DNA of 64,000 nt from Chloroflexus sp. (lineage in GTDB: Bacteria > Chloroflexota > Anaerolineae > Anaerolineales > Villigracilaceae): the NCBI GenBank assembly GCA_020723995.1, contig DYHT01000008.1:1-64000 (forward strand), in the 5' to 3' direction. The notes beneath the pieces were generated by a model that searched no databases, was not told where the DNA came from, and saw nothing but the letters and a program-made list of their open reading frames with translations. The position numbers were made by a program, and so were the translations under genes. Below are positions 21,637 to 41,620 of the stretch, piece by piece. Position 1 is the first letter of the stretch. Every line of letters starts with the position of its first letter.

Positions 21637-21785
21637 AATGTTGCTTTTCCTCATGTCAGCATGTCATTCTGAGCACACTGGTGCTTTTCCAGGGTGCGAA
21701 GAATCTCACATTTGCCAGGCGGAGACCCTTCGGGCGCAAAGAACACGCCCTCAGGGTGACAGGCCAGAGGAACATTGCGCTGTAA
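21637..21785. mobile_element. MITE-like repeat family A, copy 1 (left end degraded)
   Basis: Near-identical to 35873-36042; right end AACATTGCGCTGTAA, core GTCATTCTGAGC...CGAAGAATCTCACATTTGCC. Confidence 0.8.
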
Positions 21786-35855: not shown

Positions 35856-35872
35856 TTTATTCCCCCGCAGGC

Positions 35873-36042
35873 CTAATATTACAGCGCAATGTTGCTTTTC
35901 CTCATGTCAGCATGTCATTCTGAGCACCCTGGTGCTTTTCCAGGGTACGAAGAATCTCACATTTGCCAGGCGGAGACCCTTCGGGCGTAAAGAACACGCC
36001 CTCAGGGTGACAGGCCAGAGGAACATTGCGCTGTAATGCTAA
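35873..36042. mobile_element. MITE-like repeat family A, copy 2
   Basis: TTACAGCGCAATGTTGC...GAGGAACATTGCGCTGTAA perfect 15-bp terminal inverted repeats; near-identical to 21637-21785. Confidence 0.85.
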
Positions 36043-36177
36043 GCAACTATCTCAAAAGAGGCCGGCCGGGCTCCCATGCCCGGCAATTCAACCGCCGCCG
36101 TACCGAGACCCGACGAAGCAACCCCCTGCAACCTGCAAACAATCCAAGGGAGGTGCCATGAAACTGCTTCGTCGCGG

Positions 36178-36328
36178 GTAACTATTCAGCCAGCGCTGAG
36201 TACACCGATTTGTCACTCTGAGCGGAGCGAAGAGTCCCCTCCAGCGTGGGGGATGCTTCGTCGCACACCGTCCTGGCGGTCGGTGCCAGGGAAAAACGCT
36301 CCTCAGCATGACAGGCCTGAATAGTTAC
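36178..36328. mobile_element. MITE-like repeat family B, copy 1, flanked by 8-bp direct repeat CGTCGCGG
   Basis: GTAACTATTCAG ... CTGAATAGTTAC perfect 12-bp TIR; CGTCGCGG at 36170-36177 and 36329-36336. Confidence 0.9.
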
Positions 36329-36383
36329 CGTCGCGGAGCTTATACTGAGCATAGCGAAGTGCTCCTCGCAGCGACATGATTTG

Positions 36384-36983: not shown

Positions 36984-37020
36984 AATCTCCTGGTCACGGG
37001 TCAGAGCGGATACTGGTTTT

Positions 37021-37128
37021 GTAACTGCTCAGCCGCGCAGTGGAACGTGTCAACGAATATCCAACGAACACCTGCCCCACCGCAGGTGTTCGTTGGATAT
37101 TCGTTGACAGCAGTGGTTGAGCAATTAC
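37021..37128. mobile_element. MITE-like repeat family C, copy 1, flanked by 8-bp direct repeat CTGGTTTT
   Basis: GTAACTGCTCAGCC...GGTTGAGCAATTAC ends; 26-bp perfect inner palindrome GTCAACGAATATCCAACGAACACCTG; CTGGTTTT at 37013-37020 and 37129-37136. Confidence 0.9.
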
Positions 37129-38288
37129 CTGGTTTTTATGTGTTCGATCGCCCAGGCAGCAGAGGCGCGCACCAGCGGTTCAGGGTCAAGCAAAGCTTCT
37201 CGAAGCGCCGGAATGGCCGCCGGTTCACGCGCGTTGCCGAGTGCGATAGCCACATTGCGCAAGTAGCCGCGCCGCTTGGCGCGTTTGATCGGACTGTCTT
37301 TGAACTTTTCATTGAACACCTGTGACGTCAGTTGCATTTCCTGGATCAGGTCTGGAGAGGCAACACCCGGACGGGGCGCAAAGGCCGGATCGCCAACGGC
37401 CTCCGCGACATCGTACCCGAAGGGTAAGCGGTTCCACGGGCAGACCATCTGGCAGACATCACAGCCAAAAACCCATACGCCCATGCGGGCGCGCAATTCA
37501 GGTGGGATTTCTTCTTTCAACTCAATGGTCAGGTACGAGATGCAGCGGCGGGCATCCAGAGTGCGGTCGGGCAGGATGCAGGCGGTCGGGCAGGCGTCAA
37601 TGCAGCGCGTACAGGTTCCGCAACGATCGGCCTCGAAGGGAGGATCGGGTTCAAGTTCAATGCCGAGCAATATCTCGGCCAGCAAAAAATATGAACCCAG
37701 ATGGGGATTGATGAGGCAGGTGTTCTTCCCGATCCAGCCCAAGCCGGCGCGCTGGGCCAGGTCGCGTTCCAGGATAGGGCCGCTATCGGTGTAGCCGCGG
37801 TTGGGGACATGAAGCCCAATGTGGTTCTCGATGAACGCCGCCAAAGCGCGCAGTCGCTCAGGCAGGAAGAGGTGGTAATCCATGCCCCAGGCATAGGCCG
37901 CGATGCGCCCGTGAGGCGATTTTCCCACCCCCACCCTGCCCTCCCCCATTCTGGCCCCCCTCTGTCCCCCCATTTCTGAACTTCGAAATGGGGGGAGGTA
38001 AGGGGGGCGGGGAGGGTTGGGGAGGGGGTCAGGGGTGAGGGTCGGATTTGGGTAGCGCACGCCGAGCACGAGGATGGAACGACATTCGGGCAGGATGCGG
38101 CGCGGGTCGCGACGGCGCGCCCGGGCGCGTTCGTCCGCCAGATAAGCCATATGACCATGCCGCCCCAAGGCCAGCCAATTCTCATAGGCGGACCAGTGGG
38201 GCGGTGGATCGGGCGTGGTGATACCGGCGAGATCGAACCCCAGCCGGCGGGCTTCATCCTTGATGGATTGGGCTAACGATTCAGCCAC
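37125..38288 (-). CDS. queG: Epoxyqueuosine reductase
   Basis: CGTCTRCIDACPTACILPDRTLDARRCISYLTIELK...CDVCQMVCPWN; C-terminal HEAT-like repeat. Confidence 0.92.
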   Translation of the reverse strand: MAESLAQSIKDEARRLGFDLAGITTPDPPPHWSAYENWLALGRHGHMAYLADERARARRRDPRRILPECRSILVLGVRYPNPTLTPDPLPNPPRPPYLPPFRSSEMGGQRGARMGEGRVGVGKSPHGRIAAYAWGMDYHLFLPERLRALAAFIENHIGLHVPNRGYTDSGPILERDLAQRAGLGWIGKNTCLINPHLGSYFLLAEILLGIELEPDPPFEADRCGTCTRCIDACPTACILPDRTLDARRCISYLTIELKEEIPPELRARMGVWVFGCDVCQMVCPWNRLPFGYDVAEAVGDPAFAPRPGVASPDLIQEMQLTSQVFNEKFKDSPIKRAKRRGYLRNVAIALGNAREPAAIPALREALLDPEPLVRASAAWAIEHIKTR

Positions 38289-41306: not shown

Positions 41307-41329
41307 GGCATTCCTCCTATAAGAAAAAG

Positions 41330-41480
41330 GTAACTATTCAGCCAGCGCTGAGTACACCGATTTGTCACTCTGAGCGGAGCGAAGAGTCCCCTCCAGCGTG
41401 GGGGATGCTTCGTCGCACACCGTCCTGGCGGTCGGTGCCAGGGAAAAACGCTCCTCAGCATGACAGGCCTGAATAGATAC
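41330..41480. mobile_element. MITE-like repeat family B, copy 2
   Basis: Near-identical to 36178-36328; flanked by GAAAAAG direct repeats. Confidence 0.88.
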
Positions 41481-41620
41481 GAAAAAGGCCACTTTATTGA
41501 CGTTCCCCATGCCGAGAGAGTTCCCGACCGGTGATTTGTCTTGCCTTGTTTGATGAGCGCAAACGCATGGCTGTATTATAACGCAACAGGGGCGACCGTG
41601 CAGCCGCCCCGGTGAGAAAT

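What the first reader, a model, noticed from the sequence alone, without database searches (positions are those of the whole stretch)
36170..36336. MITE-like element with perfect TIR and 8-bp target duplication
GTAACTATTCAG...CTGAATAGTTAC (151 bp) is bounded by CGTCGCGG on both sides. A near-identical copy at 41330-41480 has GAAAAAG flanks. GTAA termini with 8-bp duplications match what is established for IS66-family elements, so these may be non-autonomous IS66-type MITEs; that family assignment is inference.
Basis: partly seen in the sequence, partly recalled or inferred. Interest (0 to 1): 0.6.

Follow-up and report, generated by a model that had tools for sequence, protein, structure and literature searches.

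The report
IS66-type miniature transposons in a Chloroflexota genome
A 151-base stretch of non-coding DNA, present about 20 times in this bacterial genome, is a miniature transposon that borrows the transposase of IS66-family insertion sequences; it is real and now well supported, but an ordinary kind of mobile DNA.

Summary
Window 36178-36328 is 151 bp with perfect 12-bp ends (GTAACTATTCAG) between 8-bp duplications (CGTCGCGG). The copy at 41330-41480 differs by one base, in its right end, and has a 7-bp duplication. The genome holds 18 copies of the 151-bp form, 3 of a 125-bp form and at least 7 full copies of a 132-bp sister family (GTAACTACTCAG ends), many with clean 8-bp duplications.
The own assembly has no IS66 transposase. 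Related genomes carry autonomous one-gene (ISBst12-type) IS66 elements with GTAACT(A/G)(C/T)TCAG ends and 8-bp duplications; three complete ones end in exactly GTAACTATTCAG. In two genomes of the same family the last 16 bp of the IS66 element, including the transposase stop codon, equal one end of the MITE. A same-genus genome shows the 41330 site empty. ISDge4, an ISBst12-group element caught transposing in Deinococcus, has the same kind of ends and an 8-bp repeat.
Mechanism: non-autonomous IS66 MITE moved in trans by TnpC. New member of a known kind. Unexplained: about half the 151/125-bp copies lack duplications, and the inner TGTCA...TGACA palindrome also occurs alone and inside other inverted repeats.

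The parts
36178..36328 (+). MITE copy 1, 151 bp
   Evidence: 18 such copies in the genome
36178..36189 (+). terminal inverted repeat GTAACTATTCAG (end matching the tnpC 3' side of IS66 relatives: GTAACTATTCAGCCAG)
36317..36328 (-). terminal inverted repeat GTAACTATTCAG (end matching the tnpC 5' side of IS66 relatives: GTAACTATTCAGGC)
36170..36177 (.). target-site duplication CGTCGCGG, left
36329..36336 (.). target-site duplication CGTCGCGG, right
36211..36313 (+). inner imperfect palindrome, TGTCACTCTGAG...CTCAGCATGACA
   Evidence: both strands of the whole element fold better than all shuffles
41330..41480 (+). MITE copy 2, one base different (right end GATAC for GTTAC)
41323..41329 (.). duplication GAAAAAG, left (7 bp)
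   Evidence: orthologous empty site in G002
41481..41487 (.). duplication GAAAAAG, right (7 bp)
37013..37020 (.). duplication CTGGTTTT, left of the third element
37129..37136 (.). duplication CTGGTTTT, right of the third element

Best explanation
The two elements are copies of a non-autonomous miniature transposon (MITE) of the IS66 family, ISBst12-type (single transposase gene, TnpC). A TnpC made by a full-length IS66 element binds the shared GTAACTATTCAG ends and inserts the MITE at 8-bp staggered cuts whose repair makes the 8-bp duplications. Shown here: multi-copy family, matching ends in autonomous IS66 elements, 8-bp duplications in both, an empty orthologous site. Inferred: that TnpC acts on the MITE in trans, and that the MITE descends from an IS66 element by internal deletion with a palindromic repeat taking the place of the gene. 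The source element is missing from this incomplete assembly, so it is either lost or unassembled.
For: 18 copies of 151 bp at 97-100% identity, 3 of 125 bp, a 132-bp sister family with GTAACTACTCAG ends. Exact 8-bp duplications at 7 copies of the 151-bp family, near-exact at 2 more, and at 5 of 7 full copies of the 132-bp family. Autonomous IS66 elements, transposase identified by NF033517 and PF03050: L091 (same order) 1505 bp with GTAACTACTCAG at both ends; L093 1617 bp, GTAACCGTTCAG, duplication CTCAATTT; L127 in the same family, 1604 bp, GTAACAACTCAG, duplication GATTTTTA. In a search of one genome per species, 48 of 68 IS66 loci examined gave a pairing of ends; apart from a handful of evident chance pairs these have GTAACTACTCAG-like ends and a length of about 1.5-1.7 kb, 10 with 7-8 of 8 duplicated bases, and three (L298, L303, L308) have exactly GTAACTATTCAG at both ends. 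IS66 remnants in the same family end in GTAACTATTCAGCCAG just after the transposase codes ...LAE-stop (L109 of G007, L179/L217 of G320), the first 16 bp of the MITE, and in GTAACTATTCAGGC upstream of the TnpC start (L185 of G335). Orthologous empty site for 41330 in G002. Independent MITEs with the same ends and 8-bp duplications in other genomes of the family: L173, L175, L178, L186, L199. Literature: ISDge4, ISBst12 group of IS66, TIRs GTGACTACTCAGCA/GTAACTGCTCAGCA, 8-bp DR CCTCGATG, observed transposing (PMC12898284).
Against: No IS66 transposase in the own assembly (85% complete) or in the three same-genus genomes, and I found no complete autonomous element with exactly these ends in the same family. 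Beyond 14-16 bp, sequence shared by MITE and IS66 is weak, so descent by internal deletion is not proved. About half the 151/125-bp copies have no duplication although they are nearly identical in sequence, and no swap of flanks among copies explains it. My end finder was seeded with GTAA-like tetramers, so the first four positions of the end consensus are biased. My transposase searches were aimed at IS66; I made no unbiased survey of other transposases next to such ends.
Confidence: 0.93

Rival explanations
1. A MITE of another transposase family that makes 8-bp duplications and happens to have GTAAC-type ends.
For: 8-bp duplications are made by several IS families (established knowledge), and no transposase with these ends is present in the own assembly. 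I searched for IS66 only.
Against: IS66 transposases repeatedly lie between such ends, including exact 12-bp identity at both ends in three complete elements and 16-bp identity in the same family; the experimentally mobile ISDge4 has the same kind of ends.
Confidence: 0.04
2. Not a transposon: a REP-like structural repeat spread by gene conversion or template switching, the flanking repeats being chance.
For: The inner palindrome does occur alone and in clusters without transposon ends.
Against: Exact 8-bp duplications at many unrelated sites, an empty orthologous site, boundaries fixed at GTAAC...GTTAC.
Confidence: 0.01
3. An extinct relic: the family spread in the past and no transposase capable of moving it remains in the species. 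(A rival about present activity only; compatible with the best explanation as to kind.)
For: No IS66 gene in the own assembly or the three same-genus genomes.
Against: Copies are 97-100% identical, nine of them fully identical, so the spread was recent; the assembly is 85% complete in 82 contigs, and long repeats are what short-read assemblies tend to lose.
Confidence: 0.35

Closest known systems
ISBst12 group of the IS66 family (e.g. ISDge4, PMC12898284)
   Same: Same kind of ends (GTRACTRCTCAG) and 8-bp direct repeats; relatives here are single-gene elements of about 1.5-1.7 kb.
   Different: The MITE is 151 bp and has no transposase gene; the inside is a palindromic repeat.
Bacterial MITEs in general (e.g. 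MITECca01 with its parent ISCca4 in Cardinium, PMC9769881)
   Same: Small, non-coding, terminal inverted repeats shared with a parent IS, many copies.
   Different: MITECca01 is tied to ISCca4, not to an IS66 element; in the papers I searched I found no MITE assigned to the ISBst12 group (a gap in my search, not proof of absence).
REP / palindromic intergenic repeats (GTAG- and CGTC-tagged, PMC3733652)
   Same: The inner palindrome is a short, many-copy, hairpin-forming, mostly intergenic repeat.
   Different: It carries TGTCA...TGACA ends; I did not test it for the GTAG or CGTC tag or for a tyrosine transposase.

Membership tests
IS66 family (ISBst12 group), as a non-autonomous derivative | Terminal inverted repeats matching those of autonomous ISBst12-type elements | tested here: met
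   12/12 at both ends with L298, L303, L308; 16/16 with IS66 ends in the same family
IS66 family (ISBst12 group), as a non-autonomous derivative | 8-bp target duplication | tested here: met
   7 exact plus 2 near-exact in the 151-bp family, 5 of 7 full copies in the 132-bp family, also in autonomous relatives; about half the 151/125-bp copies lack it
IS66 family (ISBst12 group), as a non-autonomous derivative | Transposase (TnpC) encoded within the element | tested here: not met
   151 bp, no coding capacity; expected for a MITE, so it is filed as a derivative and not as an IS66 element
IS66 family (ISBst12 group), as a non-autonomous derivative | Mobilised in trans by an IS66 TnpC | not testable with these tools
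   needs a transposition assay
MITE | Short, non-coding, with terminal inverted repeats, multi-copy and dispersed | tested here: met
MITE | Insertion polymorphism (occupied and empty orthologous sites) | tested here: met
   41330 site empty in G002
MITE | Sequence identity to a parent IS beyond the ends | tested here: inconclusive
   weak gapped similarity of the last ~26 bp to the tnpC 3' end in G320
REP elements | GTAG or CGTC tag and association with tyrosine transposases | not tested
   not searched for

The most novel reading that the evidence does not exclude
The TGTCA...TGACA palindrome inside these MITEs is a module of its own that is repeatedly taken up by unrelated miniature transposons: the same kind of core occurs alone, inside IS66-type ends in several genomes, and inside at least two other inverted-repeat types. 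If so, it would be a repeat that spreads by riding in other families' MITEs, or that makes them spread better.
Probability: 0.25. Interest if true: 0.5.

Novelty: new member of a known kind. Interest (0 to 1): 0.25.

Why it matters
It ties an otherwise unannotated multi-copy intergenic repeat of an environmental Chloroflexota lineage to a definite transposase group, and gives the end sequence (GTAACTRYTCAG plus 8-bp duplications) by which such elements can be annotated in related genomes. The shared inner palindrome is a lead on how common intergenic palindromes spread.

Tried and rejected
IS66 transposase in own genome: none. Phage and plasmid records: no match to the element. Rfam: only sub-threshold microRNA hits to hairpins, taken as chance. 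Swapped flanks among copies as the reason for missing duplications: no convincing match between copies. Own-genome paralogous empty site for 36178 by pattern: none; a related repeat in G001 serves instead. Orthologous site for 36178 in G002: the contig ends just past the upstream gene. Synteny of three copies without duplications against G002: L005 lies in a collinear region with extra DNA around it, L007's left flank matches with several gaps and its right flank does not match, L003 too weak; no clear cause (my query held only two and a half of the six loci prepared). Single GTAAC ends at C34:64311/64959, C45:21703 and C13:8539 as candidates for an autonomous copy: no transposase seen in what I read. 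Literal sequences of the core in the literature: only unrelated papers among those listed.

Full report
Check of the observation. The window reads CGTCGCGG-GTAACTATTCAG...CTGAATAGTTAC-CGTCGCGG at 36170-36336, with a 151-bp element at 36178-36328. The second copy, 41330-41480, differs by one base in its right end and is flanked by GAAAAAG. In the whole genome (2.1 Mb, 82 contigs, 85% complete) the element occurs 18 times as the 151-bp form (97-100% identity, two of these cut or altered at the end) and 3 times as a 125-bp form. A sister family of about 132 bp with GTAACTACTCAG ends has at least seven full copies. The reversed control pattern has no match.

Duplications. Of 21 copies of the first family, seven have exact 8-bp duplications, one has 7 of 8 bases and one (41330) has 7 bp; a few lie at contig ends and cannot be judged. 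In the 132-bp family five of seven full copies (L028, L029, L030, L060, L061) have exact 8-bp duplications. About half of the first family therefore lack a duplication although they are nearly identical in sequence. I tested whether flanks had been swapped between copies by recombination or assembly: no convincing partner was found. Comparing three such sites with a same-genus genome gave no clear cause. This is left open.

Empty sites. In G002 (same genus) the gene next to the 41330 copy and its upstream region align on both sides of the insertion, and the site reads ...AGAAAAAGGTCACTTTA... without the element, against AGAAAAAG-[element]-GAAAAAGGCCACTTTA here. That is an orthologous empty site with the duplicated bases present once. 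The 36178 copy sits inside another palindromic repeat; a copy of that repeat in G001 reads GCTTCGTCGCGGAG uninterrupted, a paralogous empty site.

The parent. The own assembly has no IS66 transposase, nor do the three same-genus genomes. Relatives do. L091 (same order) is 1505 bp, encodes a 483-aa IS66 transposase (NF033517, PF03050) and has GTAACTACTCAG at both ends. L093 is 1617 bp, GTAACCGTTCAG, with an 8-bp duplication. L127 in the same family is 1604 bp, GTAACAACTCAG, with an 8-bp duplication; what looks like the same element appears as L230, titled Candidatus Desulfolinea nitratireducens, which places the window's genome among the Anaerolineae (inference). A scan of one genome per species with an alignment of seven of these transposases returned 80 loci; of 68 examined, 48 gave a pairing of ends, a handful of them evidently chance, most with GTAACTACTCAG-like ends and 10 with 7-8 of 8 duplicated bases. 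L298 (Ktedonobacter), L303 (Rubrobacter) and L308 (Brocadia) have exactly GTAACTATTCAG at both ends. The end finder was seeded with GTAA-like tetramers, so positions 1-4 of that consensus are biased; the rest is not.

Link within the same family. In G007 and G320 a partial IS66 gene runs out in ...L-A-E-stop within CTGGCTGAATAGTTAC, which is identical over 16 bp to one end of the MITE; the IS66 end thus contains the transposase stop codon. In G335 the other side, upstream of the TnpC start, ends in GTAACTATTCAGGC, as does the other end of the MITE. Sequence shared beyond this is weak, so descent by internal deletion is likely but not shown.

Spread of the kind. Across 152 genomes of the family, 27 have the exact 14-mer, some of these by chance in coding sequence. 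Other genomes hold independent short elements of 142-152 bp with these ends, different insides and 8-bp duplications (L173, L175, L178, L186, L199). The window itself holds a third one at 37021-37128 with duplication CTGGTTTT.

The inside. The inner part begins TGTCACTCTGAG and ends CTCAGCATGACA, an imperfect palindrome. The pattern TGTCAYNCTGAG occurs 110 times in the genome, 0 for the reversed control. Many of these are in the two MITE families; others stand alone or in clusters, and some lie between other inverted repeats: GCCTAATATTACAGCGCAATGTT-type arms at 35871-36044 (also partly at 21662), and GTAATT..CGC..TAC.GCAAAA arms at L150. I do not know whether the core is a mobile unit of its own. 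My literature searches by literal sequence found no description, which is weak evidence.

How it works, most likely. A full-length ISBst12-type IS66 element supplies TnpC, which acts on the MITE's ends in trans; staggered cutting at 8 bp and repair produce the duplications. Direct support for this type of element being mobile comes from ISDge4 of Deinococcus geothermalis, ISBst12 group, TIRs GTGACTACTCAGCA/GTAACTGCTCAGCA, direct repeat CCTCGATG, found newly inserted (PMC12898284). Trans-mobilisation of this MITE itself is inference. My searches for a transposase were aimed at IS66, so another family with such ends is made unlikely but not formally excluded.

Verdict. It is a new member of a known kind. 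The interest lies mainly in the unexplained copies without duplications and in the shared inner palindrome.

Noticed in passing
window 37013-37136: A third element of the same kind (ends GTAACTGCTCAGCC/GTAATTGCTCAACC, duplication CTGGTTTT) with a 28-bp perfect inner hairpin; its right end appears to supply the stop codon of the ORF 37125-38288 (-), which matches QueG domains.
   Followed up: partly
window 35871-36044; also near 21662-21761: The TGTCAT...TGACA core lies between a different inverted repeat (GCCTAATATTACAGCGCAATGTTGCT / AGGAACATTGCGCTGTAATGCTAAGC), possibly another MITE family; further copies of these arms in L154 and L160.
   Followed up: partly
G000 genome, 110 places: The core TGTCAYNCTGAG is a frequent palindromic repeat of this genome, alone, in tandem (L171, 40-bp spacing) and inside MITEs.
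   Followed up: partly
L066 (G000:C59:555-598): An element with a right GTAACTGTTCAG end and an exact 8-bp duplication CATCTTTC, but whose left end is missing right up to the duplication.
   Followed up: no
L003, L005, L007, L014, L015, L017, L020, L021: Near-identical 151/125-bp copies without a target duplication; swapped flanks do not explain them.
   Followed up: partly
window 36140-36380: Copy 1 is inserted into another palindromic repeat related to a TGTCATTGCGAG-type repeat in G001 (L216).
   Followed up: yes
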